From positions 558,001-622,000 of the forward strand of contig WLXD01000001.1 of the NCBI GenBank assembly GCA_012103255.1: a stretch of 64,000 nucleotides of DNA, given 5' to 3'. Below are positions 12,299 through 27,090 of this stretch, piece after piece. The stretch comes from Acidobacteriota bacterium. Its GTDB lineage: Bacteria > Acidobacteriota > UBA890 > WLXD01. A model generated the notes under the pieces. It searched no databases. It saw nothing but the letters and a program-made list of their open reading frames with translations, and had not been told where the DNA came from. Position numbers and translations under genes: made by a program. Positions within the stretch are counted from its first letter, which is position 1; every line of letters starts with the position of its first letter.

Positions 12299-12601
12299 CT
12301 AGCCGAGCATTCCGCCGAGGCCCGGAGGCATCATGCCGCTCATCTTGCTCTGTACTTCCTCGTCCACGCGCCGGGAGGCTTCGTTTACGGCGGCGACCAC
12401 CAGGTCCTGAAGCATCTCGACCTCTTCCGGGTCGACGACGGCCGGGTCGATCGCCAGTTCGATGAGGTCCTTCTGCCCGTTGAGGGTCGCCGTGACCACG
12501 CTGCCGCCGGCGGAGGCGCTCACGCGCAGGTCGGCGAGATCAGCCGCCAGCTTGTCCTGCATCTGCTGCGCCTGCTGCATCATCCGCTTCATGTTGACCA
12601 T
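12299..12601 (-). CDS. ybaB: YbaB/EbfC-family nucleoid-associated protein, rebuilt at element junction
   Basis: The 100-residue DNA-binding protein (MVNMKRMMQQAQQMQDKLAADLADL..., ending PPGLGGMLG) has the standard YbaB length and sequence and forms a tweezer-shaped dimer. The ATG at 12601 sits inside the left 37-bp att repeat: the ribosome binding site GAGG and the first codons belong to the repeat, and dnaX is no longer upstream. Comparison with the copy behind dnaX (MVNMKKM...) shows that the first codons are duplicated and differ at codon 6 (Arg versus Lys). The protein appears intact, so integration preserves the gene. Confidence 0.95.
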   Translation of the reverse strand: MVNMKRMMQQAQQMQDKLAADLADLRVSASAGGSVVTATLNGQKDLIELAIDPAVVDPEEVEMLQDLVVAAVNEASRRVDEEVQSKMSGMMPPGLGGMLG

Positions 12602-12617
12602 CGGAGTTCCTCTACCG
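12581..12617. repeat. Left attachment-site repeat (ybaB side)
   Basis: This copy overlaps codons 1-7 of ybaB and its ribosome binding site. It shares CTTCATGTTGACCATC and GAGTTCCTCTACCG with the copy at 27054-27090; mismatches are at two bases in codon 6 and one base just before the start codon. Sharing a protein-coding 5' end rather than a tRNA 3' end is unusual for tyrosine integrases. Confidence 0.85.
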
Positions 12618-12620
12618 CTA

Positions 12621-12626
12621 ATTATC
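12621..12626 (-). promoter_or_regulatory. Possible -10 for ybaB-recR supplied by the element
   Basis: The minus strand reads GATAAT 20-25 bases upstream of the ybaB start codon within an AT-rich stretch (12618-12650), unlike the surrounding GC-rich DNA. The -35 is weak. It could replace transcription formerly arriving from dnaX. Confidence 0.3.
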
Positions 12627-12673
12627 TGAAAACAAAGAATTTACGTAGTATCACCCTACCGGTGTTCCGGCCA

Positions 12674-12701
12674 TGGGTGCGTGGCGGGTGCGTCTGGGTG
12701 C
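12674..12701 (+). repeat. Arm-type integrase sites, left end (three GGGTGC copies)
   Basis: GGGTGC occurs at 12675, 12686 and 12696, that is every 10-11 bp, on one face of the helix. The first two sit in TGGGTGCGTGGCGGGTGCGT, which is repeated with two mismatches at 26825-26844 near the other end. Position and phasing match arm-type binding sites of a tyrosine integrase. Confidence 0.55.
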
Positions 12702-13486
12702 AAGAAAGAGAGGTGCGTTCGACCATCCGCACATCGGTCGAGACCGTCCTTGTTGTCAGGGTACGACACAGCCCGCGCCTAGGCTACGCGGCGGGGTACC
12801 GGTGGGCTCTGGAGCTGCCGGGTGGGGGGTATCGGAGTCCCGAGGTGGCCGTGGCCGATCCCGCGCGCCCGATACTCCTGGAATTGCGCCCCTACCGGGC
12901 GGGGGCGATTCGCCGGGTCAGGCGCGTTCGTGCACGTCTCCACACGTTCGGCTCCAGAAGGACTCGACTCACTCGACGACAGGATCCGATCCGCGCTCCT
13001 TCTTCAATGTCAGGAATCAAACCTGGACCTGTCACTATGAGTGACATATAGTTGGCCTATGCCGAGACACGATCCTGATGAGAGCGAAGTAATTGTGGTG
13101 CCTGGCCCAGGATTCTTGGGAAAGGCACTGGGCGCGCGAGTAGCTGCGGAACTACCGGACCTCGAGGTGCTCGTCGTGATGTACGCGCACCACGGGTGCG
13201 TCGCTTCGCCGCGTCGGCGATGGTTGCTTGCCGCACGATCGTTCTCTCTGAGATCGTCTCGTTCGGAGCTCGTTTTCAGGTTCCCGGGTCTGCCTGTCGC
13301 AGATCCGGCGCCGCGTCGGTGGCCTGTTCCCAGCTCGGATCAGCCGCCTCAGTCCGTCCCGGCCATCCTCACGCAGGCGTGGCCAGTCAACTCCTCCTCT
13401 TGCGGCAGACCGCTCGGGCTAGACCAGCAATCGCTGGACTATTTCGAGGACGGTTTTGCAATCCCAAGAAAGGAAGGAGGAGTGAC
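12702..13486. other. Element left-end region without a convincing gene
   Basis: Nearly 800 bases separate the arm sites from the first supported gene. Frames open here (for example 13059-13580, beginning with a plausible VIVVPGPGFLGKALGARVAAELPDLEVLVV stretch) lose coding character after about 45 residues and become Arg/Ser-rich, so at most a gene fragment is present. A TGTCACT-ATG-AGTGACA palindrome lies at 13030-13046. The rest is GC-rich sequence in which I see nothing further. Confidence 0.45.
13030..13046. promoter_or_regulatory. Perfect 7-bp palindrome, candidate HTH operator
   Basis: TGTCACT and AGTGACA flank a 3-base centre, forming a 17-bp perfect inverted repeat followed by ATAGTT. 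It is upstream of the small ORF and XRE gene at 13487-13951 and could be the binding site of that XRE protein. Confidence 0.4.
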
Positions 13487-13675
13487 GTGGACCGACAATG
13501 GAAGCGCCTCGTCGAGTTGCTCGATCGCGCTCGCAAGGAGCTGGGAGACCCTGCATTCAATGCAATCCGCGCGGCCCTAGGCCAGGCGGTACTGCGCAAG
13601 GCAGCGCGCTCGTCGCGCGAGCTGTTCGCGGTGGTGTGGGACATATTGGTGGACCTTCAGGGACCGCCCGAATAG
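13487..13675 (+). CDS. Small helical protein with strong ribosome binding site
   Basis: This 62-residue protein starts at GTG (VDRQWKRLVELLDRARKELGDPAFNAI...) and is preceded at 6-7 bases by AAAGGAAGGAGG, one of the strongest Shine-Dalgarno sequences in the window. It is predicted fully helical with amphipathic repeats and no membrane span. The frame extends upstream, but that part has no coding character, and the ribosome site fixes the start. It is followed 33 bases later by the XRE gene. A toxin, antitoxin or regulator role is possible; nothing in the sequence decides. Confidence 0.55.
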   Translation: MDRQWKRLVELLDRARKELGDPAFNAIRAALGQAVLRKAARSSRELFAVVWDILVDLQGPPE

Positions 13676-13708
13676 ATCGGAGACTGATCAATCGAATATC
13701 GCGCCGCG

Positions 13709-13951
13709 TTGGGCGAAGTTCTGCGGGCCTACCGGGAGGAAGCTCAACTTAGCCAGCGAGCGCTCGCTGACCGAGCAGTGCTCGCCCGAAGCTACGTGAT
13801 TCACATCGAGCAGGGCGAGAGGCTTCCGAGCTTCAAGACGCTCGCCCGAATAGCCGACGTGCTCGGCGTACGAATGGGTGAGGTTCTCGATCGAGTCGAT
13901 CGAGATCATCCGACAGCCCTCAGCGCCTTCCTGGCGGCGCTACACGACTAG
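13709..13951 (+). CDS. XRE-family helix-turn-helix regulator
   Basis: The 80-residue protein is essentially one HTH_3 domain: LGEVLRAYREEAQLSQRALADRAVLARSYVIHIEQGERLPSFKTLARIADVLGV. The start is uncertain: TTG 13709 is the first standard start codon, but residues encoded just upstream (EYRAA) also look native. It sits directly behind the small protein gene and upstream of the membrane protein/DUF3761/KAP genes, so it is the natural candidate regulator of that cargo, perhaps acting at the 13030 palindrome. Confidence 0.78.
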   Translation: MGEVLRAYREEAQLSQRALADRAVLARSYVIHIEQGERLPSFKTLARIADVLGVRMGEVLDRVDRDHPTALSAFLAALHD

Positions 13952-14202
13952 CCACGTTCCGGGGCGACGGGCGCCGTGTGGACGGAGTCCCCACCCCGAA
14001 CCGGCGGGTTGCGACCGGTCCGGCGATCCATTGACATCGCGAAGCCGCCATGGCGGACACGGAGGAGAAGTAGCACGGTAGACCGCACCAACCTCCGCTT
14101 CCGTTCGGTCGCGCGCCGAGGAGATTTCCGAACGCAGCTTCGCAAACCGCGACTCCGCTCGGTTCTCCTAGGCGACGGAGCCGCGACCTACGGAGGAAGT
14201 AG

Positions 14203-15331
14203 ATGGAAACGGGGCCAGCCCAGAAAGAGCCAGCGGTGGGGCGCTTCTTCAGACTCCTACGATCTCACTGGCTGGCGATCACGACGATTTACATCGTGCT
14301 TAGCGGCGCAACTTACTTGGTTTTTGAGTTTCAGCGGGCGAGCGACATCGCCTTCACGATGCGCGCTTCCACCGAAATGTTGGATGGTCTCGACCAACTG
14401 AGCTCACTACTAGATCGGATCGCCTTCCAAGCAACGGTCCTCGTGGCGGGCTTGTCGGCAATCGCCCTAACCGCAGCGCTGGTGAAGTATCTGAATATGC
14501 CCGGAAGCTCGGCCATGCGGGCGGGCGACCGGACGGGGGGGGGGCCAGCGCGTCTCTCAGAACATGCGCGTCATGTTCGAACGCTATCGCGCTTCCGCCG
14601 ACGTGCGACTGGACGCGCTCGACCAGAAGCTGGACGCGTTGCGGGCGCGAACGGAGGCGCAGTCGGCCACGGTTCCGGAAGTTATCTCAGAGAGCGCACG
14701 AGCTCAGATTGTCGAGGCGCTTCGGGCCAGGCTCTCGGCGGAAGTGACCGGCGACATGCTAGCCGAAATAGAAGCCCGATACGGCGATCCGATCCGGCAG
14801 GCTGCGAGTGTGGATGCGATCGATGATCGTATCGGGCAGATGCGAGACCGGCTGGTGGACGAAATCGAAGCACTTAGGCGGCGAGGGAACTTAAACCTGA
14901 TACTCGGAACGCTCGCCACCAGCGCGGCACTCGCGATAACCCTTTGGTATGTGACCAACACCGACCTTGGTTCGGTCGAGATCACGCTGGCAGGAATCTC
15001 CGCCTACTACTTACCGCGCGTGTCGGTTGCGATCTTCGTGCAAGTATTTGCGTTTTTCTTCTTGCGTTTGTATCGATACAGCCTCACGGAGATCAAGTAC
15101 TTCCAAAACGAACTCACGAATGTTGAGGCTCGTTGGGTGGCCTTGCGAGCCTCCGTCGAGCAGGACGAGGAGACTCGGCGCGAGGTGGTTCGTTCGCTCG
15201 CCACGACCGAGCGTAACTTCGTCCTGAAGAAGGGCGAGACCACGGTCCCCCATGGGCCTGCCGTGGACCCCGGCGAGACCAAGGGGATTATCGAGGCGAT
15301 CTCCGGACTGATCACCAGTGCGAAGAAGTAG
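14203..15331 (+). pseudogene. Four-helix membrane coiled-coil protein, frameshifted at a G10 tract
   Basis: The first frame (from ATG 14203, after GGAGGAAG) encodes two membrane spans (WLAITTIYIVLSGATYLVF; FQATVLVAGLSAIALTAAL). The second frame, to 15331, encodes a coiled coil (LDALDQKLDALRART), two further spans (LILGTLATSAALAITLWYV; SVAIFVQVFAFFFL) and a charged tail. They are offset by one base at a run of ten G (14535-14544); nine G would give one protein of about 375 residues. The tract could be a sequencing artefact, a phase-variable switch or a slippage site. The downstream DUF3761 gene overlaps its end by 14 bases. I do not recognise the family. Confidence 0.68.
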
Positions 15332-16661
15332 CCGCCGGACCATCGTAGTCATCGCGGTCCTAGCGGTGATAGGCGGCGCATCAGCTCCAGTGGCCGACGC
15401 ACAGAACTTGAGCCGTCAAGTTCTGTATTCGGGAAGTCACAACGGCACGGAAATCCTAGCGCTGTCCGTCGGAAGTGTGCCTACACAAGCGCAGCTCGAC
15501 GCCATCGCAGAGGAGTTACTCGCCTCTGATACACGGTTGTTGATCTACCGGGGATATCCGAGCCTTTCGGAAGCGCGCCCGATCGCCGTCTACCAGGATG
15601 GCCAAAGGGCTCTGATCGACCTGGAGGCACCGGTCACGCGCTCGGGGACCACGGTCCAGAGCGAGATCTCGAGTGCGGTTCGCTCCAGCGGTCGTCGGAC
15701 GGGCGCGACGTGCAAGGACGGAAGTAGCAGCAGTGCGACCGGGCGAGGTGCCTGCAGCCACCATGGTGGTGTCCGCCGGTGGCGCTACGGAACGACGCGC
15801 GACACGAACAAGGTAGTCGCGTCGATATGCGCCGACTTGAAGCTGGTTGCCGGCGAGAGATGCGGACGTATGCCGTCGATCGCGAAGGTTCGGAACACTC
15901 GGTACGCGGTTCCATCGAAAGTGCGCGGGGTTTCCTTCTTGCCGGAACCTTCAACGAGTCCCGCCGCTGGGGCGACGCTCGGAGTCGGCGCGATCTCCGG
16001 CGCCGCCGTGGCGCGCGTCCCGGCACTACCGCCTTTCGATCAGACTGCTGCCGAGGTCGACGGAACCGCCGAAGTGACCGATGTGAACGTCAAATGGGGA
16101 TCCGTTGGCCAGGGTCTCGCAGCCTCGTCGAGGTGGGAGATCTCCATTTCGCGGCGATCAATGCGATCCGCTGAAGCAGGCGTCGAGCTACAGCTCGTCG
16201 ATGCCGCCGGCGAGACAGTCTGGCGTCAGGTGGTGGCGGCGCGGCTAGGCGGAGGCAACGAAATGGTCCGGGCCGAGGCCGTGGTTCCCAGGAATGCCGT
16301 AGCTGCTGCGGTTGACTACTCGGCAGATCTTCTTTGGGTACATCACCAAGGTCCGGAGCCGGTTGTAGCGCCCAACGAGCGGGGCACAACCGGTCCGGAT
16401 CCGGCGACCGTGGAGTACTGGGGGATGACCGCGACGACTCACTTCCCCGGACGTCGCGGACTTACGAGCGGGACAGTCGACTGTTTCTTGCAGCTTCCCG
16501 TCGTTGAGGATTCCGATAGTGGTGTGTTGGTGCCGGAGACATCCTTCACTACGATTGAACGTCGTAGGAATGCTGCGGGCGTGGAGATGCTTCGTGTGGA
16601 GTTGAGCGGCGGGACCAGGTGCTGGCTTGAGGCGTCTCGAGTAGCGACAGTTGATCGCTGA
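15318..16661 (+). CDS. Secreted protein with DUF3761-like motif
   Basis: The 447-residue product has a signal peptide (1-29, ending ADAQ). Around residues 131-153 it carries CKDGSSSSATGRGACSHHGG, the two-Cys, HHGG-containing pattern of DUF3761, a domain often attached to secreted or envelope proteins. The C-terminal half has beta-rich sequence with two further Cys (DCFLQL, TRCWLE) that may form a disulfide. GTG 15318 overlaps the end of the membrane protein gene by 14 bases, so the two are probably expressed together. The KAP NTPase gene follows 93 bases later. The function is unknown; an envelope sensor for the KAP module is a guess. Confidence 0.62.
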   Translation: MRRSSRRTIVVIAVLAVIGGASAPVADAQNLSRQVLYSGSHNGTEILALSVGSVPTQAQLDAIAEELLASDTRLLIYRGYPSLSEARPIAVYQDGQRALIDLEAPVTRSGTTVQSEISSAVRSSGRRTGATCKDGSSSSATGRGACSHHGGVRRWRYGTTRDTNKVVASICADLKLVAGERCGRMPSIAKVRNTRYAVPSKVRGVSFLPEPSTSPAAGATLGVGAISGAAVARVPALPPFDQTAAEVDGTAEVTDVNVKWGSVGQGLAASSRWEISISRRSMRSAEAGVELQLVDAAGETVWRQVVAARLGGGNEMVRAEAVVPRNAVAAAVDYSADLLWVHHQGPEPVVAPNERGTTGPDPATVEYWGMTATTHFPGRRGLTSGTVDCFLQLPVVEDSDSGVLVPETSFTTIERRRNAAGVEMLRVELSGGTRCWLEASRVATVDR

Positions 16662-16754
16662 GAGGACCTGCGCGCGCGCCAAGCCAAACTGACGACGACC
16701 ACCTTGTCGCCAATATGTCGGCGTTCAAAGGCCGGCGCAGATGGACGAATAGTC

Positions 16755-18773
16755 ATGGCCATGCGTGAGGAGCCTGCCGCGGACCTGCCTCAGGTACTGG
16801 TTGCCCACACCAAGGAGCTCGACACCTGGGTGGGGAGCCTACGCGGCGTTGACGCGAGCGATCTACGGCTGATCAGCGGATCTCTGCCGCACATTACGGG
16901 TTGGGCGCCCGAGCAATTTCGAGCGTTGATCATTGTCGCGTCATCCCGGCGGTTTATCCGGTCATCTACATTTATCGAGTTGCTCCGTGCCTTCGAGAAC
17001 ATGCCCGTCGGTTTCGTCATGACCGAACCGGCAATGTCTCTCGCTGATACCTACGCTTCCGTGATGTTTCAGGTCGCGGAGCACAGTCTGCCGCCACGCG
17101 AGCTCCGTGCTAGGAAGGCCAGCACGTCGGAGGACTTCGAGCCGATCGCTCTCGACTTGGCGCGAGAGCTCATCTCCCTCGGACGGCCTGATACGCCGCC
17201 AGTCCAAACCAAGAGTCAGACGGTCGATCAATCCGATGATCTCGTCCTGGTAGAAATGCCCGGCCCACGTCTGGGTTGGTGGGTCCCGGAAGAGCTCCTC
17301 GGGTCGCCCGAGGGAGTCGACTACGAGACGGATGTCCCGTCGAAACTCGATCACCTAGGTCGGGATGCGGTGGCCCTTTCAGTCGCGCAGCTCTTGAACG
17401 ATGTTCACGGCAAGTTGGAAGGTGCCTTCCTTGTGCAGCTCCATGGTCGCTGGGGGTCTGGCAAATCGACACTCCTCGAGCTGATCCGCCCGCGCCTCAC
17501 GACCGAACCTCCTTCCAGACGCTGGATTGTCGTCGACTTCAACGCCTGGCGTGAGCACGACGCGCCGTCCGCCTGGTGGGCCCTCGTGGAAGCCGTCTAC
17601 CGTCAGTCGAGGCAGCAGCTCGACAACTCAATCGATTTCTTTCGAGGCACCCGCCTTGGCGTCTGGCGCCGAGTGTGGCGAGCGCGCAATCTGTGGTCGG
17701 GCCAGCTCGTCGCGACCGTCATCGTCACGGTTCTCTTCTGGCTCGCTGCGGGTCGAGTGGAGCAGGCCTGGATTGCCGACAGCATGAAAGGAGCGACCGC
17801 GGTCGTGGCGTCATTTGGCGGGGCGATGGCGATTGTGAGGAGCCTGCGCCCGTCCGGTGCGCGGGCCGATGCGCTATTGCGAGACTCGATGACCGACCCG
17901 CGCGGTACCCTGCGCAGCTACTTCAGCGAGCTCGTCCGCCGGATCGGCCAACCGATGGTCATCTTCATCGATGACCTCGATCGTTGCGGAAGCAGTTTTG
18001 TTGTCGGTTTTCTCCAGTCGATCCTGACTACCTTGCGCGACGCGCCCGTCGTCTACGTCGTTGCGGCGGATGGCGATTGGCTCCGCAACAGCTACGAGCA
18101 GGAGTACGCGACCTACAAGGGCGTGGGCGATACAGGCCCCCATGCGACACTGGGAGATCGTTTCATGGAGAAGGTCTTTCAGGTTTCGATTTCGTTGCCT
18201 CGCGTGCCGGATGAGACACGGTCCGAGTTCTGGGCCCATCTTCTGGGTGCGGACGCCGGACGAGAAGAGCCCAGCGACGAAGAACTGGAAGCCGCTCGAG
18301 GGGCTTTCGAAGATGCGCCTTCTGAGCAGGCTGTTCTCGACGATATCGCTGAGGCAGACGAGGACGGCGGGAGCCAAGCACGGGCGGCACGCCGAGCGGG
18401 GTTTGAGCGGCTAGCTGCGCGGGATCTCGTCGCTTCTACGGAGCACTTCCTGCTGCAGTTTGCGGATCTGGTGGGACGCAACCCGCGCCAGATGAAGCGT
18501 CTGTTGAACGCGTACCGATTGAATCGCGGCGTCCGAATCTTGCTCGGGTACGACATCAACCGTGCTCACCTGGCCCTATGGAGTGTCTTGCAGATGCGCT
18601 GGCCTCGACTCGCCGAATATCTGCGAGAGAACCCGGACGCGATCCTGACCGACCATGATCATCCCGAGGGTGCGCCGGTGGCCGTGTTGGAAACCCAGGA
18701 AGTGCAGGAGGTGATCGACCGGTTCGGCGTAAACAGTAGAGACCTCGCGGAAGCCATTCGGCGGTGCACCTGA
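16755..18773 (+). CDS. KAP-family P-loop NTPase with membrane spans
   Basis: The 672-residue protein has Walker A GRWGSGKST (231-239) and Walker B MVIFIDDLDRC (401-411). Two predicted membrane spans (about 318-333 and 346-363) are inserted between them, the defining KAP arrangement. RNPRQMKRLLNAYRL is a typical C-terminal KAP motif. Residues 1-120 form a separate alpha/beta domain I cannot name (APEQFRALIIVASSRRF), possibly an adaptor or effector-associated domain. ATG 16755 is chosen; TTG 16704 is an alternative. KAP proteins include PifA, which excludes phage T7, and the ATPase QatA, so a defence role is plausible. It ends 17 bases from the convergent EEP gene. Confidence 0.86.
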   Translation: MAMREEPAADLPQVLVAHTKELDTWVGSLRGVDASDLRLISGSLPHITGWAPEQFRALIIVASSRRFIRSSTFIELLRAFENMPVGFVMTEPAMSLADTYASVMFQVAEHSLPPRELRARKASTSEDFEPIALDLARELISLGRPDTPPVQTKSQTVDQSDDLVLVEMPGPRLGWWVPEELLGSPEGVDYETDVPSKLDHLGRDAVALSVAQLLNDVHGKLEGAFLVQLHGRWGSGKSTLLELIRPRLTTEPPSRRWIVVDFNAWREHDAPSAWWALVEAVYRQSRQQLDNSIDFFRGTRLGVWRRVWRARNLWSGQLVATVIVTVLFWLAAGRVEQAWIADSMKGATAVVASFGGAMAIVRSLRPSGARADALLRDSMTDPRGTLRSYFSELVRRIGQPMVIFIDDLDRCGSSFVVGFLQSILTTLRDAPVVYVVAADGDWLRNSYEQEYATYKGVGDTGPHATLGDRFMEKVFQVSISLPRVPDETRSEFWAHLLGADAGREEPSDEELEAARGAFEDAPSEQAVLDDIAEADEDGGSQARAARRAGFERLAARDLVASTEHFLLQFADLVGRNPRQMKRLLNAYRLNRGVRILLGYDINRAHLALWSVLQMRWPRLAEYLRENPDAILTDHDHPEGAPVAVLETQEVQEVIDRFGVNSRDLAEAIRRCT

Positions 18774-18789
18774 TCCCACGAACGGCTGC

Positions 18790-19938
18790 CTACTTGAGCG
18801 TCTCCAGATAGTCCTGTGTGAAGTCGATATCGAGTTCGACCCAGAGCGGGTAGTGGTCGCTCATCTGGAAGGTGCGCCACTCTCCCTCGTAGTACCACCG
18901 CCGCTCCTCGGCATTTCCGAGTTGGCTCTCGATCTTCGCGATGCCCTTGTCGGCCTTTGCAATCTTCTTCGCGCTCGTCGTCGCCGCCTTCTCTTCCTGT
19001 AGGGCGACCTTGCGGCGCTCGAGCGTCTTGATCACCTCGGCGTCGTACGTCTCGAACTGGTCATCCCTGAACACACTCTCGAAGAAGTTCAACACCCCAT
19101 GCGCGCGGTCACCGTCCGCCAAACGCAGCTCGCCCGGTCGAGTCCTGAACGAGATCTGGTCGTAGAACTTGTTCTGCTTCCGGTTGCTGCCGACCTTGTT
19201 CCGGAAGACCTCGAACCCGAACTTGTCGAGCGCGTCGTAGGTCTTGTCTTCGAACTTGTCGATGTTGAAGTCACCGACCAAGACGTAGTTAGCGTCCTCG
19301 TCTTTCGCGCGCTTCGCGAGGAACCTAGCCACCGACTCGATCTCCTTGACGCGTCGGGCATAGGCCGCCGATTTCTTCGAACTTTCCCCGTAGTAGATGT
19401 GCACGGTCGCGAGCACGAAGTTGAACCAGCCTGAACGGAACGAAGCGGCGAAGGGTGTCCGCGAGAACTGCCCCTTTTTCGTCGATTCGCTCATCCGCAG
19501 CCTGTCGGGCAGGACAACCTCGCCAGCGACACCGGTGAACGTGACTTTGCGACGGTTGTAGATCATCCCGAGGCGTTCAGTGTTGCCGGCCCGACCCTCG
19601 GTCACGTCGGTAACTAGATAGCGGTAGTCGGGGCCAAGAACTCGCATTAGTCGCTCGAGGGGCCCGAGGCCTCGATTGAGCTCCTGAATCGCGATCACGT
19701 CGAAGGCCGCGATGATCTCGGCCAAGTAGTAGAACGACTCGGGGAGCCGGGGACCGTGGCCGAACTTGTTGTCGTCAAAGTCTCGAGTGTTGAGCGTGCC
19801 GAGGATGAGCGACCGGTCAGTCGTTTGTTCGGGCAGCGTCGTTCGGATCTGTTCTCTGATCGCTTCCAGTCCGGCAACGACGCGTCTCCGCACCTGGATC
19901 TTTTCTCGTTTCAAACGCCAGTAGCTCGGCACGCGCAC
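18790..19938 (-). CDS. Endonuclease/exonuclease/phosphatase (EEP) fold protein
   Basis: The 382-residue cytoplasmic protein has the full set of EEP catalytic motifs: N50 in LGTLNTRDFDD, E86 in VIAIQELNRG, H in LATVHIYYG, DFN in YVLVGDFNID, and the terminal SDH in MSDHYPLWVELD. Nuclease, phosphodiesterase and phosphatase members share these residues, so the substrate is open. A charged helical insertion (KTLERRKVALQEEKAATTSAKKIAKADKG) near 305-335 is unusual and could mediate binding. It converges on the KAP gene and shares no promoter with it, but both lie in the cargo part of the element. Confidence 0.85.
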   Translation of the reverse strand: MRVPSYWRLKREKIQVRRRVVAGLEAIREQIRTTLPEQTTDRSLILGTLNTRDFDDNKFGHGPRLPESFYYLAEIIAAFDVIAIQELNRGLGPLERLMRVLGPDYRYLVTDVTEGRAGNTERLGMIYNRRKVTFTGVAGEVVLPDRLRMSESTKKGQFSRTPFAASFRSGWFNFVLATVHIYYGESSKKSAAYARRVKEIESVARFLAKRAKDEDANYVLVGDFNIDKFEDKTYDALDKFGFEVFRNKVGSNRKQNKFYDQISFRTRPGELRLADGDRAHGVLNFFESVFRDDQFETYDAEVIKTLERRKVALQEEKAATTSAKKIAKADKGIAKIESQLGNAEERRWYYEGEWRTFQMSDHYPLWVELDIDFTQDYLETLK

Positions 19939-20083
19939 CTACCTTGTTGACGGGTTGCTTCTAGATGTGAACCGGCCCGTGTCGAGTTTTCCGAATGCCG
20001 CGCGCGACGGATTCACCCATGCATCGTTAGACCGTTGCCCTGAACCGCTGTCATGGTGTCCATCTAACCCGGAAGGAGGTTGC

Positions 20084-20485
20084 ATGAACACGAACACACT
20101 GCGGATGAAAATCCAGGACACCTTGGTCGAGCTCCGGAAGCGCAGCGGCTTCGAACTGGTCGTTCTCGGCGAGATCTTCGTTGAGGAAGCTCGCGCGATA
20201 GCAGCGGCTGAAGAAGTACGGCAGGCTGCGGCTCGGGTAGAAGTTGTGGGACCTCCCGTTGTCGCCGAGGTCGTTCCGTACACACCGGCACGCTCGGTCT
20301 CGGATGACGACCCAGAGCGCTTGCTGACATACCGGGAAGTCGCTCGGTATCTCGGGTGTTCCGTGGCCACCGTGAAGCGCTACGTGCGGCTGGGGCGTCT
20401 GACCCCCAAGCGCTTGAGCTCGCGCTTGGTGCGATTCCGGCTGTCGGAAGTTGAAGCGCAGCTGACCGGCGATAGAGAGAGCTGA
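20084..20485 (+). CDS. HTH_17/MerR-like DNA-binding protein (excisionase-like)
   Basis: The 133-residue protein starts at ATG 20084 behind GGAAGGAGG. Residues 1-80 are helical with an acidic/hydrophobic character. Residues 82-130 form a winged helix-turn-helix of the excisionase family: LLTYREVARYLGCSVATVKRYVRLGRLTPKRLSSRLVRFRLSEVEAQL is read across that stretch. Such proteins bend DNA at att sites or regulate element genes. It lies in the middle of the element, away from the ends, so a regulatory role is as likely as excision. Confidence 0.72.
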   Translation: MNTNTLRMKIQDTLVELRKRSGFELVVLGEIFVEEARAIAAAEEVRQAAARVEVVGPPVVAEVVPYTPARSVSDDDPERLLTYREVARYLGCSVATVKRYVRLGRLTPKRLSSRLVRFRLSEVEAQLTGDRES

Positions 20486-20494
20486 TCGCGCGGC

Positions 20495-21205
20495 TCAGCC
20501 GGACTCGACTTCCGAGATATCCGAAAGGACGTGCTCGAGGCAGACGGGGATGACCATCACGTCGTCTTTGAGCTGTTCCGCGAGGAAAAGGGTCTCTGCA
20601 ACGGTCACGCCGGGATCTGAGCCGCCCCCGAAGACGCCCTCGAATAGCGCCTCGTCTGCGCCCAGATAGTGCCCGTCGATCCTGCGTCTAGACGTGGCCG
20701 TTAGGAGCACGAACTCGTCGCCCCGGCGTGCCAACCGCTGCAGGCCCTTGTTCAACAACCCGACATCTACGTGCGCGCCTGCCTTGTGGCGAAGCATTAT
20801 CAAACGCTTGTCTCCCTTCCATCTCTGACGGAGCTGGAGAAGCTCGCCCCACTTCTCCGCGGACTCAGTGAGATGCGTGCCGAGTCCGAGGGCTTCCAGG
20901 TCGTCGATCTTCTCGCACAAGTCGTGAACGTGGTTCGCGGCCCAGGGCACCAATGCCATGATGTTTCGGCTCCCCGCGGTGGCTGAGCGACGGTCGATCC
21001 GGTGGTTCGCTAACACGAACTCCCAGAATGTGGCGAGTCTGTTCGCGGCGACGAGGCACGCAACGATCAACACGAACGCTGGCGCGCTGGGCCCCTTGAT
21101 CGCAAGCGGCAGGTTAACCGTGATGTCAGGTGGTGGGCTCCGGAACAGGGCCCGCCGGATGGCCGCGACGCTCGCGAGCCATAGCCGAGTGAGTTTCTTC
21201 CACAT
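20495..21205 (-). CDS. Unknown protein with one membrane span and R-x5-H motif
   Basis: The 236-residue product starts at ATG 21205, 5 bases after GGAGGAGGAAG. One strong membrane span (about 42-62, APAFVLIVACLVAANRLATF) separates a basic N-terminus from a cytoplasmic helical domain. That domain contains LIMLRHKAGAH, matching the R-x4-6-H spacing of HEPN ribonucleases in a similar local context, but no second HEPN feature was recognised. Its stop lies 10 bases from the convergent stop of the HTH gene. The function is unknown; a membrane-anchored effector is a speculative reading. Confidence 0.52.
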   Translation of the reverse strand: MWKKLTRLWLASVAAIRRALFRSPPPDITVNLPLAIKGPSAPAFVLIVACLVAANRLATFWEFVLANHRIDRRSATAGSRNIMALVPWAANHVHDLCEKIDDLEALGLGTHLTESAEKWGELLQLRQRWKGDKRLIMLRHKAGAHVDVGLLNKGLQRLARRGDEFVLLTATSRRRIDGHYLGADEALFEGVFGGGSDPGVTVAETLFLAEQLKDDVMVIPVCLEHVLSDISEVESG

Positions 21206-21336
21206 GTATACTTCCTCCTCCATGAAGACACCGGCGAGAGGCTCGGCTCGTTGACCCGGTGACCAACCGTATCCTGCGGTGGTCCTGCCGAGACCCATGC
21301 GCCGCCCCGATGGGGCGTTGAATAGGAGAACCGGCA

Positions 21337-21705
21337 ATGTCCTTCACGCGCCGAATGTTCCTCACGATCCTGCCGACCGCCGTGGTCGGCGGCATCGATC
21401 GAGTGCCCGAACGCCCGTCAGAGGGCCGAGCATCCGCGCCCACGAAAGGAATGAAGCGCACGCCGGATGGATGCGTTTACGGGGACTGGTTGATCCAGCG
21501 AGCGAGTCCACGGAGCGGGTGGCGCGCAAGGGTCATCGGCTTTCCTGGGGGTAGCGTCTATTTCGGTCCACGATTGCGCGCCCACAAATTACCGGACATC
21601 CGCTGGATGATCGACCACTGGGGTAAGCCCTTCACTACATGGCCAGAAGGCGCGTCTCGGAGCATGGGCTACGGCAAGAAGTGGACGAAGGCAGCCCCGC
21701 GCTGA
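21337..21705 (+). CDS. Small exported protein with twin-arginine-like leader
   Basis: The 122-residue product begins MSFTRRMFLTILPTAVVGGID, a twin-Arg pair followed by a short hydrophobic stretch as in Tat signals. AGGAG lies 8 bases before the ATG. The remainder is basic and aromatic (VYGDWLIQRASPRSGWRARVIGFPGGSVYFGPRLRAHKLP is the readable core) without known motifs. It is divergent from the membrane protein gene at 21205 and converges on the integrase. It could be a real cargo protein; homologs were not recognised. Confidence 0.45.
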   Translation: MSFTRRMFLTILPTAVVGGIDRVPERPSEGRASAPTKGMKRTPDGCVYGDWLIQRASPRSGWRARVIGFPGGSVYFGPRLRAHKLPDIRWMIDHWGKPFTTWPEGASRSMGYGKKWTKAAPR

Positions 21706-21743
21706 CGGCTCTGCCACAGGTCTCGCTGAGAGGCGACGGGTCG

Positions 21744-22934
21744 CTAGCTCCGAGCCGACAGGGGAGCGGTCCGAGCTGCCTCGCGATCCCGATAGGCCTG
21801 TCCGTATTGCTTGAACAGGTGGCCGGGAGTGGCGTGGCCGGATCGCGCGGCGATCGCGTAGACATTAGTGTCCGCGTCGTCGATCCAGCGGCTGATCGCC
21901 GTGTGCCGGAGCTGGTGTAGCGAGTGATTCTTCGGAAGCGGCACGCCAGCCTTGCGAGCGGCTCTCTTCAGCAGTGCGCGCATAGCGGTCTGGGTGTGCG
22001 GTCGGCCCGTGGTCGCCATCTCGAAGAGCCATTCGCTCGATTGCCTACCTCTCTCGAACGCCCTGGCGTCGTTCGCCGAGCGAAGCCGGCGCAAGCGTTC
22101 AAGTAGCTGTTGGGACACGCGAGATTTCCTCGCCTGGCGTGTCTTCGTCACGTCGCGGTATTCATAGTGGAACTGCCCACGGACAGTAACTTCGCCGGTC
22201 TTCCAGTCGATGTCGACGACCCGGAGTCCAGCGGCTTCTGACGGACGAAGCCCGGCCTCGTCGAGAACGCGGAAATAGCAGGTCACCCGTTCGTTTGGAG
22301 AGATCTCCTCGATCACGGCCAACAAGCGAGATCGCTGACTTTCGGTCCAACCTCGACCGGTCTCACCGTCGTCCTGTGTCTTCAGTGCTTTCGGGAGTAC
22401 TTGTCGTCGAGCTGGGACTCGATCGACCTTGTCCTCTTCGCTCGCATATCTCAGAACGCTCAGGACGTGAGTAGCGATGCAATCGACGGTGCTGGCGGCG
22501 AGCCCCTTGCCGCGAAGCCCGGTCACAAAGTTGCGGAGGATTTCGACCGTCAGTCCATCACGAAGCGGAAGATGGCCGAGGTCGGGCGCGATGTGGGTTC
22601 GTTGATAGGTCGCGTAGGCCGCGCGCGAGTTCGGCGCCCAGATGTCGCGGTGCCGTTCGTTGTAGGTTTGGAGATACTCCGCAAGGGTGATCTCCTCCGA
22701 CGCTGGCGCCAGACCAGCAATCCCCATCGCGTCAGCTAGTTGGGGCAAGGTTGTAATTGTCATGCCGACTGCCGAGTAGTCGCTCACGGCTGAGTTGATC
22801 TTCGACGCGGTCAGGTTGGCTTCCTCCACCGAGTCGAATGTCACCGTCTTCAGTTTGCGGCCTTCGTGGGTGATGACGAGACGCCTCTTCTCGGTCGTCC
22901 GGTCCTTTCGTGGCGCTTCGACGTAGGCTTTCAT
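21744..22934 (-). CDS. Tyrosine-type site-specific integrase
   Basis: The 396-residue recombinase starts at ATG 22934 (MKAYVEAPRKDRTTEKRRL). A SAM-like core-binding domain (EITLAEYLQTYNERHRDIWAPNSRAAY) spans about 105-190. The catalytic domain has Arg I in AGLRPSEAAGLR, the HQLRHTA box (His and Arg II) and SGHATPGHLFKQYG carrying the final His and nucleophilic Tyr. All catalytic residues appear present, so it should be active. It overlaps the upstream XRE gene by ATGA and is therefore probably under its control. It should recombine the 37-bp repeats at the element ends. Confidence 0.95.
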   Translation of the reverse strand: MKAYVEAPRKDRTTEKRRLVITHEGRKLKTVTFDSVEEANLTASKINSAVSDYSAVGMTITTLPQLADAMGIAGLAPASEEITLAEYLQTYNERHRDIWAPNSRAAYATYQRTHIAPDLGHLPLRDGLTVEILRNFVTGLRGKGLAASTVDCIATHVLSVLRYASEEDKVDRVPARRQVLPKALKTQDDGETGRGWTESQRSRLLAVIEEISPNERVTCYFRVLDEAGLRPSEAAGLRVVDIDWKTGEVTVRGQFHYEYRDVTKTRQARKSRVSQQLLERLRRLRSANDARAFERGRQSSEWLFEMATTGRPHTQTAMRALLKRAARKAGVPLPKNHSLHQLRHTAISRWIDDADTNVYAIAARSGHATPGHLFKQYGQAYRDREAARTAPLSARS

Positions 22935-23518
22935 TCGGCGGTCTCCCTCTGGTTCGCGGCGGCATAGTCGAGGGCAAGCATCGCTGCCTTCTCCGCGTAC
23001 TCGAATTCGGTAGCCGGTAGCTCGGCGCCCGCAACGCCCGCAAGGATTCGGTACTGCGATGAGTTCCGGATCTCGTCGATCACGGCCACCCACTCTTCCG
23101 TGCTGACTAGGCGGTGGGCCAATCCTGCTCGGTGGACGTATCGATGCAGCAGCAGTTGCACGATGTCGTCGAGTTCATCGACACGTCGAGCGACAGCCGC
23201 CTCGAACTCCTTCGTGGGGTTCTCCTCGGGATGAGCCTCGCGTGCGATTCGGACGGTGCTTGCGAAGAATCGCGGCAAGGTCGACCCCAGGCCGTCCACG
23301 ACGACCCTCGATAGCAGGGCCACTCCGGAGTCGTGTTCGCCGCTCTCGATACGGGCCACGGTGTTCACGTGAACGCCCGACTTCGCCGCGAGGGCCCGCT
23401 GGGACAACTTCTGGCGCTTGCGCAGAGCCAACACGCGAGCCGCGATTCTCTCAAGCAGGTCGATGTTGTCGGTCACCAGCAGCTTTGCCTTGTAGGGGAA
23501 CGGGTAGTTACCCTGCAT
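22931..23518 (-). CDS. XRE-family regulator coupled to integrase
   Basis: The 195-residue product carries an HTH_3 domain (about 20-80): VLALRKRQKLSQRALAAKSGVHVNTVARIESGEHDSGVALLSRVV. A helical C-terminal domain of about 110 residues follows (EFEAAVARRVDELDDIVQLLLHRY), which might sense a ligand or mediate oligomerisation. Its TGA overlaps the integrase ATG, the arrangement expected of an element switch that links control to integration. It is divergent from the small XRE protein at 23615; both may bind the 96-base space between them. Confidence 0.85.
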   Translation of the reverse strand: MQGNYPFPYKAKLLVTDNIDLLERIAARVLALRKRQKLSQRALAAKSGVHVNTVARIESGEHDSGVALLSRVVVDGLGSTLPRFFASTVRIAREAHPEENPTKEFEAAVARRVDELDDIVQLLLHRYVHRAGLAHRLVSTEEWVAVIDEIRNSSQYRILAGVAGAELPATEFEYAEKAAMLALDYAAANQRETAE

Positions 23519-23614
23519 GGTAGCACCACAGAAGGTTACGTTGCAACCACAAGATCATGGCGCTAATGTTCTCGTCATCTACCGACCCGTAGCCCGACTG
23601 GGATGGAGGAACGA

Positions 23615-23866
23615 ATGGCCAGGAACACCAACCCGCTTTCGAAGCGCGACCAGATGCGGATTCGCAACAACATCGAATCACTGCGACACCGTCAGGAGAT
23701 GACGCGGCAGCAACTCGCCTACCACGCTGGCATCACGGAGAAATTCCTGAGCCGGATCATCAATGGCCAGCAACTGCCCAGCCTCCCAAATGCCTTCGCG
23801 ATCACTCACGCGCTCGGTGTCTCGGATATCGGACGGGTCTTCATCTGCGAACTGGATCTCAAGTAG
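23615..23866 (+). CDS. Small XRE-family regulator (Cro/CI-like)
   Basis: The 83-residue product is a single HTH domain (MRIRNNIESLRHRQEMTRQQLAYHAGITEKFLSRIINGQQLPSLPNAFAITHALGV). ATG 23615 is used because GGAGG lies 7 bases upstream; an ATG at 23603 overlaps that ribosome site. Divergent small and large XRE genes beside an integrase resemble a CI/Cro-type decision switch. It leads into the replication cassette, whose first coupled ORF starts 45 bases downstream. Confidence 0.8.
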   Translation: MARNTNPLSKRDQMRIRNNIESLRHRQEMTRQQLAYHAGITEKFLSRIINGQQLPSLPNAFAITHALGVSDIGRVFICELDLK

Positions 23867-23910
23867 CCGCTGCCCGACGCCGGCAACGCTTCGATCCTGG
23901 GGGAGGCCCC

Positions 23911-24042
23911 GTGTCACGACAAGAAAGAGCCCACGGATCCCGGCGCCAGCCGGGACGGCGACCGCTGCGGGCGACGCTCTGGAGGCCCTCGGCGGTACGC
24001 CTCTTCTGGAGCGACCGATATGTCTGTCAGGTTCCTGACTGA
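23911..24042 (+). CDS. Possible 43-residue leader ORF of the replication cassette
   Basis: A GTG start 5 bases after GGGGGAGG opens a frame of 43 codons that ends in TGATG, sharing a base with the ATPase start. The peptide is very basic (SRQERAHGSRRQPGRRPLRA). The coupling and ribosome site argue for translation; the composition does not suggest a folded protein. Confidence 0.35.
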   Translation: MSRQERAHGSRRQPGRRPLRATLWRPSAVRLFWSDRYVCQVPD

Positions 24043-25058
24043 TGTCTGGGAAGAAGCGGCTGCCGAAGTCCTGGCGGCTCGACGACTTTCTAGAGATGGA
24101 GTTCGGAAAACTGACGCCGATTGTCGAGGGCCTGATGCACCGGGGCGACCGGGTAGTGATCAGCGCTCAAGCCAAGGCGGGAAAGACCACGTTCCTGCAC
24201 AACCTAGTCCGTTGTCTCGCAGATGGCGGCAAGTTTCTCGGAAGGTGGGAAGCGACCCCTGCGCGCGGGACCGTTGCTCTGATTGATACCGAAATGGACC
24301 CGCGGCGCTTGCAGGACTGATTGGGGAAACTCGATATCGCGAATCCCGAGAAGGTCACTCTGTGGTCGATCCGCGACGACAAACGTACGTTCGATATTCG
24401 TGACGACCGAATCAGATCGTGGTGGGCGAAGAAGTTGAGCGAGGCTCGGGTCGAAGTCCTGATTCTTGATTGCGTGCGCCCGGTGCTCGACGTGCTGGGA
24501 CTTGACCAAGATCGGGACGCGGGGAAGTTCCTCGAGCCGCTCGCACAGTTGCTTGCCGAAGCCGGGATAGACGCGGCAATCATCACCCAACACATGGGCC
24601 ACGAGGGCACCCGGACGCGCGGCGACTCACGTTGGCGAGAATGGCCCGATGTCGAGTGGCGCATCAAGAAGCGCCAAAAAGGACAAGATCGATCCCCGCG
24701 CGTGTTCTCGGCTTTCGGTCGAGACGTTGATGTTGACGAGTTCGTCCTCGAATTCGACTCGGATCTGAATACGCTTCTGGCGCGCGGTGCCCCGGTCAAC
24801 TCCGGCGCACGGCGAAAGGCCGAGCGGGCGGCTCGGACGCAAGCCGCGCAACTGACGATCTTGCGCGCGCTGATGGACGCCGCGTCGCCCCTTGGGACAC
24901 GGGCTATCAGGAAGGTCGCAATGGCCGAGGGCCACGCTCAAGACGTTGTTGAGGTGGCTCGCAAGAACGCTATCGCCGACGGTCTGATCACTACCGAGCG
25001 GGGGGCGATGCTCTGGCACTCAATCACCGACAAGGGCAGATCCAGGGTCGGCGAATGA
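24042..25058 (+). pseudogene. RepA-like hexameric ATPase with in-frame TGA
   Basis: Reading through one TGA (24318-24320) gives a 338-residue RecA-fold ATPase of the plasmid/phage RepA type. It has Walker A SAQAKAGKTTFLHNLV (about 46-60), TVALIDTEMDPRRLQD, Walker B-like VLILDCVRPVLDVLG, IITQHMGH, and a C-terminal winged helix (ILRALMDAASPLGTRAIRKVAMAEG). The stop falls in QD-*-LGKL, where a Trp (TGG) would fit, so a single G-to-A change is the simplest explanation. Without read-through the 92-residue product lacks Walker B. It is coupled at both ends (TGATG before, ATGA after), showing that it was one gene. Confidence 0.78.
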
Positions 25059-25258
25059 GTTGTGCGAAACGTGCGGTGAACGTGCGGTCGCACAGTCCGC
25101 ACACCGGAGTTCGGGGGCTGTGCGGATCGTGCGGGGGGTACGTAGTACCCCGCACGTCCGCACACCCAACTTTGCCCCTGTTCTCGGGCTGTCTGAGCGG
25201 GTTCCCACGTCGAGTGTGCGGCGGGGGATCTCGCACGATCGCGGCGAGGTTCGGCTGA
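25055..25258 (+). CDS. Coupled small ORF over GTGCGG-rich repeats (coding or origin-like)
   Basis: A 67-codon frame starts in the ATPase stop (ATGA) and ends in TGATG with the helicase start, so it bridges two coupled genes. The peptide is Cys/Gly/Arg-rich (LCGSCGGYV). The DNA itself is repetitive: GTGCG repeats near 25062-25110 and an inverted repeat TGCGGGG...CCCCGCA around 25131-25160. It could be a real small protein or a replication origin with iteron-like sites beside the initiator gene; the sequence cannot decide. Confidence 0.4.
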   Translation: MSCAKRAVNVRSHSPHTGVRGLCGSCGGYVVPRTSAHPTLPLFSGCLSGFPRRVCGGGSRTIAARFG

Positions 25259-26589
25259 TGACGATCACCGCGACTATTCGGCAGGAGATCGAGCTCCGGG
25301 GACTATCGACTCGTCAGATCGCTCGAGTGAAGCGACGACTCGTCTACAAGAACCCTGCATGGGCCCCGGTCGGCAGAGGCCGGCGGGGTCGTTCCGACGT
25401 GCCGCGAACACTTCCCTTGTATCGCGAGGCCAGTGGCATCGTGGTGGTGCCAAGAGGCTGCTGGCCCGATCTACTACGGGCGCTGGAAGAAGTCGCCGGA
25501 CAAATCGAATACGTCGACGAGACCATACGCACACCTCTCGGCAGAGCGGTTACCCTTACGGGCGAGCTCCGCGAATACCAGATTGAGGCGCTGGACGGGT
25601 TGTTGCAGCGCCGTTGCGCCATGCTGGTAAGCCCCACCGGATCGGGCAAGACGGTCATGCTCGCCGGAATCGTCGCCCGGTTGCAGCTTTCCGCCCTGGT
25701 GCTCGTCCACACATTGGAATTGCTTCGTCAGGCGCGCACCGAGCTGGCGAAATGGCTGGGCGTCGAAGTCGGCGTAATCGGAGGCGGGCAGCACGATGTT
25801 CGAGACGTCACGGTCGCTACTCTGCAGACCCTCGTTCGCCGCGACCTCTCTGACCTCGCTCCGCGATTTGGCGTCGTGCTGGTCGATGAGACTCATCACG
25901 CGCCGGCAAGGTCGTGCTTTCGCGTCCTTGCAGAGTTGCCCGGGGCGCACCGCTACGGCGTGACGGCCACGCCGTGGCGCAAGGACGGTCTCGAAGCGCT
26001 CATGCATGCTGCTGTAGGGCCGGTGGTACACGAGGTGCCCCAGCAAGCACTCGAGGTCGCCGGCGCCTTCGTCCGACCGAAGATCGTCTCGGTTCCAGCG
26101 GATTTCACGTACCAGTTCGCGGACGATTGGCCGGCGATGATCACCGCGCTCACAAACGACGCCGACCGTAACCGGCTCCTCTGCACCCAGGTACGGAAGA
26201 GAGTCGGACCGACGACGCGCGGTCTCGTCTTGACCGATCGCGTGGCTCACGTGCGGCAGTTGGGAGATGACCTGCGGGACATGAATCCAGTTGTTCTCCA
26301 CGGCGATCTGAGTCCGTCTGCTCGGAAGACTGCGATGGAACAGATCCACGCCGGAGCGACTCTCACGATCGCGACCTACTCTCTCCTCGGCGAGTGAATC
26401 GATGTCCCTGGCTGGGACATGCTGCTCTTAGCGACCCCGATCGCAGGCGGCACCAAGACGAGGCAGGCAGTCGGAAGAGTTACCAGACCCGCCTCCGGGA
26501 AAGACCGAGCCATCGTGGTCGATGTCATCGACGGGAACGTGCCGGTCCTCGCCCGAGCTGCGCACAAGCGTCGCAAGGTCTATCCATGA
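25258..26589 (+). pseudogene. SF2 DEAD/DEAH-like helicase with in-frame TGA
   Basis: From ATG 25258 (MTITATIRQEIELRGLSTRQ) the frame encodes LREYQIEALDGLL (Q-like region), Walker A SPTGSGKTVMLAG, motif II VLVDETHHAP, motif III GVTATPWR, and the start of the second RecA domain. A TGA at 26395-26397 interrupts motif V, LLGE-*-IDVPGWDMLLLATP, where Gly (GGA) is expected. Motif VI QAVGRVTRPASGK follows in the same frame, and the gene ends at TGA 26589 in an ATGA overlap with the next HTH gene. Truncation removes the arginine finger, so the 379-residue product should be inactive. It is the second nonsense lesion in this cassette. Confidence 0.8.
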
Positions 26590-26810
26590 ATCGGCTACTC
26601 GGCTCGCGCGACTTGGCCGAGCTTCTCGGCGTGCACCGGAATACCGCTCAGCGGAAGATCAAGTCGGGGAAGTGGGGGAAACCTCTCCGAGATCCCGACA
26701 GCGGGAAGTGCTTCGTGCGTGAGGCCGATGTGCTCGCCCGCCTCGACCCGGAGCTAGGTCTCGAGACCCGCGTCAACGACCGTCTGCGGCAACTATTCCG
26801 CGACACATAG
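26586..26810 (+). CDS. Small HTH protein, excisionase-like
   Basis: The 74-residue product (MNRLLGSRDLAELLGVHRNTAQRKI...) is one HTH_17-type winged helix with an acidic tail. Its ATG overlaps the ancestral helicase stop (ATGA). It is the last gene before the right end, 14 bases from arm-type repeats and about 240 from the att repeat, the usual place of an excisionase. Role by position only. Confidence 0.7.
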   Translation: MNRLLGSRDLAELLGVHRNTAQRKIKSGKWGKPLRDPDSGKCFVREADVLARLDPELGLETRVNDRLRQLFRDT

Positions 26811-26824
26811 ATCCGGTCCGTTTG

Positions 26825-26844
26825 TGGGTGCGTGCCGGGTGCAT
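26825..26844 (+). repeat. Arm-type integrase sites, right end (two GGGTGC copies)
   Basis: GGGTGC at 26826 and 26837 (11-bp phasing) within TGGGTGCGTGCCGGGTGCAT, 18 of 20 bases identical and in the same orientation as the copy at 12674-12693. Its position inside the right end supports an integrase binding role. Confidence 0.55.
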
Positions 26845-26985
26845 GGCCGAGATCGGGTTACGTGCGGCCAGCGGTTCATCAAAACTGAGGTGGCTGCCAG
26901 AAACCTCTGCGCTGCAGCCGCTTTGAGCGGTCTGGGCACCCGAGAGACCTGGAACGCTGCAGCATGTGGCATCTTGCGCGGTGAT

Positions 26986-26997
26986 ACCACGCGTGGT
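26986..26997. promoter_or_regulatory. 12-bp perfect palindrome near right end
   Basis: ACCACGCGTGGT is perfectly self-complementary and lies between the excisionase-like gene and the att repeat, followed by an AT-rich stretch (27001-27020). It could be an operator or an Xis/IHF-like accessory site. No protein can be assigned. Confidence 0.35.
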
Positions 26998-27017
26998 TTC
27001 GGTTAAATCCTTATAAA

Positions 27018-27074
27018 TCAGTCGTTTACGGGAACGTTCTCCGATTGGACGACCATCTTCTTCATGTTGACCAT
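27018..27074 (-). pseudogene. Remnant of ybaB 5' end left behind dnaX
   Basis: The dnaX stop is embedded in TGATG, and the ATG opens MVNMKKMVVQSENVPVND followed by TGA. The first residues match YbaB (MVNMK) and then diverge at the edge of the att repeat. This shows where ybaB began before insertion and that dnaX and ybaB were translationally coupled. It may still be translated as an 18-residue peptide. Confidence 0.75.
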
Positions 27075-27090
27075 CAGAGTTCCTCTACCG
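27054..27090. repeat. Right attachment-site repeat (dnaX side)
   Basis: Direct repeat of 12581-12617 with three mismatches over 37 bp. It spans the last codons and stop of dnaX, the ybaB ribosome site and the first codons of the ybaB remnant. Because dnaX reads through it without damage, this side keeps the ancestral sequence. Confidence 0.85.

What the first reader, a model, noticed from the sequence alone, without database searches (positions are those of the whole stretch)
14525..14570. G10 tract frameshift inside the membrane coiled-coil gene
Ten consecutive G break one predicted 375-residue protein into two frames; nine G restore it. Poly-G tracts of this length are classic phase-variation switches in bacteria and are also prone to sequencing error or transcriptional slippage. 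In a possible effector gene next to a KAP NTPase, on/off switching would be biologically meaningful.
Basis: partly seen in the sequence, partly recalled or inferred. Interest (0 to 1): 0.65.

Follow-up and report, generated by a model that had tools for sequence, protein, structure and literature searches.

The report
Poly-G frameshift in prophage-type membrane gene
A run of ten Gs really does break one membrane-protein gene into two frames, but the same assembly shows this breakage in several other genes with long G runs (including nusA), so it is most likely a miscalled or ordinary slippage-prone repeat in a mobile-element cargo gene rather than a proven on/off switch.

Summary
Observation confirmed. 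G10 lies at 14535-14544, the only G/C run of 7 or more in the window. It separates ORF A (14203-14826) from ORF B (14564-15331). The two halves form one family: 111 homologous loci were found, and nearly all encode both halves in one ORF. The family is PHROG 5157 (function unknown), a four-helix membrane protein carried by prophages and islands; in two E. coli strains it sits at the P2 fun(Z) locus, a known defence spot. Here it is cargo of a ~14.5 kb island that splits dnaX from ybaB-recR, contiguous in four relatives.

The switch reading is not established. In this assembly, G/C runs of 4-7 change frame no more often than random positions, but runs of 8 or more inside genes are frame-broken in 5 of 13 cases, including nusA. 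Contig ends carry G24-C76 runs. Seven of ten internal tracts of 10 or more lie outside genes, unlike Campylobacter contingency loci. No homolog has the tract at this place, and no sister allele was found among 396 phylum genomes. Best reading: an otherwise intact cargo gene with a slippage-prone tract of uncertain length in a loose hinge. Evolved phase variation remains possible (about 0.16); reads would decide.

The parts
14535..14544 (+). G10 homopolymer; encodes Gly 112-114 in frame A
   Evidence: sequence
14203..14826 (+). ORF A: N-terminal half (two hydrophobic helices, from about residues 23 and 79) plus about 93 out-of-frame residues after the tract
   Evidence: N-half aligned to homologs
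14495..15331 (+). Frame B, open from 14495, first ATG 14564: coiled coil, two further hydrophobic helices, conserved C-terminal motif (FFLRLYR..EIKYFQNE..TERNFVLKKGETT)
14192..14197 (+). GGAGGA ribosome-binding-site-like sequence before ATG 14203; none before ATG 14564
   Evidence: read by eye
15318..16661 (+). Predicted secreted protein with DUF3761; GTG start overlaps the end of frame B by 14 nt with no clear ribosome-binding site (possible translational coupling, inferred)
16704..18773 (+). KAP P-loop NTPase, weakly QatA-like (79.5 bits against a cutoff of 600)
21744..23093 (-). Tyrosine recombinase/phage integrase of the island
12602..27073 (.). About 14.5 kb island inserted between dnaX and ybaB; dnaX-ybaB-recR are contiguous in four relatives
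12299..12601 (-). ybaB, left flank of the island (recR follows at 11693-12295)
   Evidence: identified by protein sequence and gene order
27074..29350 (-). dnaX, right flank of the island
   Evidence: identified by protein sequence and gene order

Best explanation
14203-15331 is one gene for a four-helix membrane protein of the PHROG 5157 family, carried as cargo by a mobile island. It holds a slippage-prone run of about ten Gs in codons for a variable, loosely structured hinge between the N-terminal helix pair and the coiled coil. In the assembled sequence the run is one base off frame, so a ribosome would make a 207-residue truncated product. The most likely cause is not an evolved switch. 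Either the assembly miscalled the run length (about 0.35), or this is an ordinary slippage variant or mixture in the sampled population (about 0.27). Shown: tract, frames, family, single ORF in homologs, island, and the same breakage at other long G runs of this genome. Inferred: which of the two causes applies, and that the protein acts in exclusion of or defence against phages.
For: Homologs carry both halves in one ORF and all 37 aligned members hit one PHROG. The tract sits at a weak stretch of the model (mean pLDDT 54-57 over residues 101-120) and at residues that the family does not conserve. Frame breakage rises with run length in this assembly: G/C4 29 of 1835, G/C5 5 of 277, G/C6 1 of 36, G/C7 0 of 3, random positions 113 of 4405; then G8 1 of 7, G9 1 of 3 (nusA), 10 or more 3 of 3. 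That is 5 of 13 against background, Fisher p about 1e-5. nusA is broken here but intact (481 and 476 aa) in two same-genus genomes. Contig ends and C9:266.1 kb carry G24, C27, C34 and C76 runs that look like assembly artefacts. [quoted passage not shown]
Against: Sequencing technology is unknown; long reads are inferred from the nine large contigs and the contig-end runs. Runs up to 7 are called well, so the assembly is not generally poor. Seven of ten internal tracts of 10 or more lie between genes (binomial p about 1e-5 if 10% of the genome is intergenic), which a position-blind artefact would not give; the tracts themselves are probably real even if their exact length is not. Four of the five broken genes are of dispensable types, and the nusA break costs only an acidic tail that the relatives do not share.
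Confidence: 0.62

Rival explanations
1. Evolved phase variation: the tract is a contingency switch. Slippage changes its length by one and turns the membrane protein on or off, and by translational coupling perhaps the DUF3761 gene too.
For: Poly-G of 8 or more drives phase variation in Campylobacter, where 9G and 10G are the commonest lengths (PMC6321876). The genome has an excess of runs of 10 or more, three of them inside genes and all frame-breaking. A homolog in another viral contig (L146) is broken at a G8 and another (L140) carries an in-frame G9; G8 or longer is marginally enriched in the family (3 against 0.81 expected, P 0.037). The family sits at a phage-defence locus in E. coli, where switching would make sense.
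Against: No length variant was seen for any allele. The tract is not at the same site in homologs. Most long tracts of this genome are outside genes (7 of 10), the reverse of Campylobacter. nusA shows the same breakage. The enrichment is marginal and rests on few genes.
Confidence: 0.16
2. Fixed pseudogene: the cargo gene is decaying in its new host, and the G10 is simply its first inactivating lesion.
For: The gene is a horizontal acquisition with no relative in 396 genomes of the phylum. About 8 of 111 homologs are disrupted by frameshifts or a stop (L019, L038, L039, L053, L055, L061, L146, L151). Another gene of the window, a sulfatase near 9361-9380, is frame-split without a homopolymer.
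Against: No second lesion is seen in either half, the conserved C-terminal motif is intact, and both sides of the tract keep coding character.
Confidence: 0.15
3. Programmed recoding: polymerase slippage or a +1 ribosomal frameshift on the G run yields the full protein from the G10 allele.
For: Long homopolymers are slippery in general (own knowledge); the two frames overlap for a long stretch, 14495-14826.
Against: Homologs have no overlapping-frame arrangement, so recoding is not a family feature; no stimulatory element was looked for.
Confidence: 0.03
4. Two genes: the helix pair and the coiled-coil half are made separately, ORF B starting at ATG 14564.
For: ATG at 14564 directly after the tract; L019 shows a similar overlapping layout.
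Against: No ribosome-binding site before 14564; nearly all homologs are fused; L019 is one MAG and may itself be a frameshift.
Confidence: 0.02

Closest known systems
PHROG 5157 (phage protein family, function unknown)
   Same: Window protein matches with E 2.3e-28 and all 37 aligned members match; same C-terminal motif and helix layout.
   Different: Frame-broken by G10 here; G+C-rich (0.60) while the family median is 0.35; lies on an island with an integrase, not in a recognisable complete prophage.
Campylobacter-type poly-G contingency loci
   Same: G run of 9-10 inside a gene, on/off by reading frame in silico.
   Different: No length variants seen, tract not conserved in homologs, and most long tracts of this genome lie outside genes.
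P2 fun(Z) locus cargo (anti-phage lysogenic conversion genes)
   Same: Family members lie between the tail fibre assembly and tail sheath genes of two E. coli P2-like prophages, the place of fun(Z) in P2.
   Different: Only two E. coli strains plus viral contigs L117 and L102 show this place; activity untested; the window copy is not in a P2-like phage.
Homopolymer indel errors of long-read assemblies
   Same: Homopolymer-linked frame breakage is confined to G/C runs of 8 or more, and runaway G/C runs stand at contig ends.
   Different: Technology unknown; long tracts are concentrated between genes, so they are not random artefacts.

Membership tests
PHROG 5157 | Profile match | tested here: met
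   E 2.3e-28, residues 138-348; 37 of 37 family members match
PHROG 5157 | Helix layout and C-terminal motif of the family (not a formal criterion of the PHROG) | tested here: met
   Alignment, hydropathy and model; the present frame is broken at G10 in the assembled sequence
Poly-G phase-variable locus | G/C run of 8 or more in or next to a gene, length changing the frame | tested here: met
   G10 at 14535-14544
Poly-G phase-variable locus | Length variation between cells or strains | not testable with these tools
   No reads; no second allele among 396 phylum genomes
Poly-G phase-variable locus | Tract kept at the same site in orthologs | tested here: not met
   No homolog has a G/C run of 7 or more in the hinge; only L123 has a G6 just after helix 2. 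Homologs are distant, so close orthologs remain untested
Poly-G phase-variable locus | Genome-wide set of long tracts concentrated in genes | tested here: not met
   3 of 10 internal tracts of 10 or more are in genes; about 82% of poly-G in ORFs in Campylobacter per PMC6321876
Anti-phage defence gene | Match to known defence models | tested here: not met
   No PADLOC match for the window protein
Anti-phage defence gene | Location in prophage cargo or defence loci | tested here: met
   66 loci in viral contigs, integrases commonest among neighbours, P2 fun locus in E. coli
Anti-phage defence gene | Protects cells from phage | not testable with these tools
   Needs an assay
Qat system (for the KAP neighbour) | QatA model at its curated cutoff | tested here: not met
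   79.5 bits against 600
Programmed frameshift gene | Overlapping frames conserved in homologs | tested here: not met
   Homologs are fused

The most novel reading that the evidence does not exclude
A poly-G contingency switch controls a phage-exclusion membrane protein of the PHROG 5157 family on a mobile island of a free-living, ADOP-rich (Acidobacteriota-like) bacterium, as part of a set of poly-G switches in that genome (TonB receptor, ADOP permease, several promoters).
Probability: 0.1. Interest if true: 0.62.

Novelty: new member of a known kind. Interest (0 to 1): 0.3.

Why it matters
The G10 itself is a caution: in this assembly genes with G/C runs of 8 or more should be read as 'frame uncertain', nusA included. 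The useful by-product is a widespread prophage-cargo membrane family without a Pfam or NCBIfam model (PHROG 5157) that occupies the P2 fun(Z) locus in E. coli, so a simple lab test for phage exclusion is at hand. If reads did show real length mixtures, this would be an example of poly-G switching of phage-exclusion cargo in an environmental bacterium.

Tried and rejected
KAP partnership: no KAP-like or other gene recurs beside homologs. Neighbour scans with PADLOC and Pfam: scattered defence, transposase and metabolic hits, no fixed partner. Known family: no Pfam or NCBIfam model. Fold search against PDB and BFVD: nothing at E 0.001 or better; weak coiled-coil and ExbB/TolQ matches are not used. 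PDB sequence search: only coiled-coil noise. Sister alleles by DNA pattern around the G runs of L146 and L140: only themselves. tblastn in phage records: none. Relatives (60, then 396 phylum genomes): none. att repeats of the island: none convincing. Four-letter-word codes GGGC and ACGG misread other codons and were dropped for CGTC. Long G tracts of relatives: mixed coding and intergenic, not conclusive. Close relatives of L038 within its genus could not be searched. Papers naming PHROG 5157: none.

Full report
CHECK. The window has exactly ten G at 14535-14544, and no other G or C run of 7 or more. ORF A runs 14203-14826 with a GGAGGA site before its ATG. Frame B is open from 14495 to 15331; its first ATG (14564) has no such site. 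By dinucleotide shuffling a G10 appears in 11 of 100 windows. By the real run spectrum of the genome (G7 60, G8 8, G9 3 internal) about 0.2-0.4 internal runs of ten or more are expected and ten are seen; contig ends and one junk region hold the remaining nine of the 19 starts counted.

THE PROTEIN. The downstream half finds 45 loci in reference genomes from Proteobacteria, Bacteroidota, Verrucomicrobia, Planctomycetes and others, at 27-51% identity, and a family profile finds 66 loci in viral contigs. An HMM of the family shows both halves in one ORF in nearly all 111 loci; exceptions are L019, L038, L039, L053, L055, L061, L146 and L151, which look disrupted. There is no Pfam or NCBIfam model, but every aligned member matches PHROG 5157, function unknown. 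Four hydrophobic helices, starting near residues 23, 79, 232 and 269, flank a long coiled coil. The tract encodes residues 112-114, in a stretch of low model confidence where the family is not conserved. Fold searches gave nothing significant.

CONTEXT. dnaX, ybaB and recR are contiguous in four relatives, but here 14.5 kb lie between dnaX and ybaB, with an integrase at 21744-23093, HTH regulators, a KAP NTPase, an endonuclease/exonuclease/phosphatase-fold protein and a helicase-like protein. The gene has no relative in 396 genomes of its phylum. More than a hundred ADOP permease matches suggest Acidobacteriota (inference). In viral contigs integrases are the commonest neighbours. In two E. 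coli strains the homolog lies between tail fibre assembly and tail sheath genes of a P2-like prophage; in P2 itself that place holds fun(Z), annotated as blocking T5 growth, and Vassallo et al. describe the locus containing fun as defence-enriched (PMC9519451). Phage exclusion is therefore a reasonable, untested guess. No gene, KAP included, recurs beside homologs.

IS IT A SWITCH? I surveyed 864 kb of the same genome for frame changes across homopolymers. Runs of 4-7 G/C change frame as rarely as random positions do. Among runs of 8 or more inside genes, five of thirteen do: a Ser/Thr kinase with PD40 repeats (G8), nusA (G9), this gene (G10), an ADOP permease (C11) and a TonB-dependent receptor (G14); Fisher p about 1e-5. 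nusA is intact in two same-genus genomes, though with a different tail. Contig ends bear G24, C27 and C76 and one internal spot is low-complexity junk. Runs of ten or more are said to remain problematic in long-read assemblies (PMC9262707). This points to miscalled or unstable run length in general, not to a switch of this gene. Against pure artefact, seven of ten internal long tracts lie between genes, so the tracts are likely real.

For a switch one would want length variants or conservation of the tract. Neither is there: no second allele is available, and homologs lack the tract at this place. Two homologs do carry long G runs elsewhere in the gene: L140 an in-frame G9, and L146 a G8 that breaks the frame in helix 3. 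Synonymous codon shuffling makes G8 or longer only marginally enriched in the family (3 against 0.81, P 0.037). This keeps the switch alive at about 0.16.

CAVEATS. The sequencing technology is not known. The frame survey uses a codon-usage score and sees only positions that are clearly coding on both sides. The 13 intragenic runs of 8 or more are few. The homologs are distant (at best about 50% identity over short stretches), so absence of the tract in them says little about close orthologs, which were not found.

VERDICT. Observation right; interpretation half right. One gene, prophage-type cargo, with a slippage-prone tract of uncertain true length. Ordinary until reads say otherwise.

Noticed in passing
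window 8543-10097 (-): A sulfatase gene is split into two frames near 9361-9380 with no homopolymer nearby; both parts match the Sulfatase Pfam model.
   Followed up: partly
window 12602-27073: A ~14.5 kb integrase-bearing island splits the dnaX-ybaB-recR gene order that is contiguous in four relatives; no att repeats found.
   Followed up: partly
window 16704-18773: KAP NTPase weakly similar to QatA (79.5 bits, cutoff 600), with a secreted DUF3761 protein just upstream.
   Followed up: partly
L069 1997-3094 (own genome C2:144539): nusA ends early at a G9 run in its acidic tail; same-genus relatives have 476-481 residues.
   Followed up: yes
L010, L011, L012, L013, L014, L016, L064: Runs of 10-14 G/C lie outside genes, often just upstream of a start (e.g. 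between a sigma factor and a sigma-54 activator, upstream of Hsp20 and bactofilin); possible promoter tracts.
   Followed up: no
L146 2685-2692: A PHROG 5157 homolog in another viral contig is frame-broken at a G8 in helix 3; L140 has an in-frame G9.
   Followed up: partly
L253 9683-10720; L255 2683-3720: PHROG 5157 homologs occupy the P2 fun(Z) locus in E. coli prophages.
   Followed up: partly
L019 4697-4945; L038 4342-4794: Two homologs are frame-split just after helix 2 next to T7 and A7 runs, the same structural place as the window's G10.
   Followed up: partly
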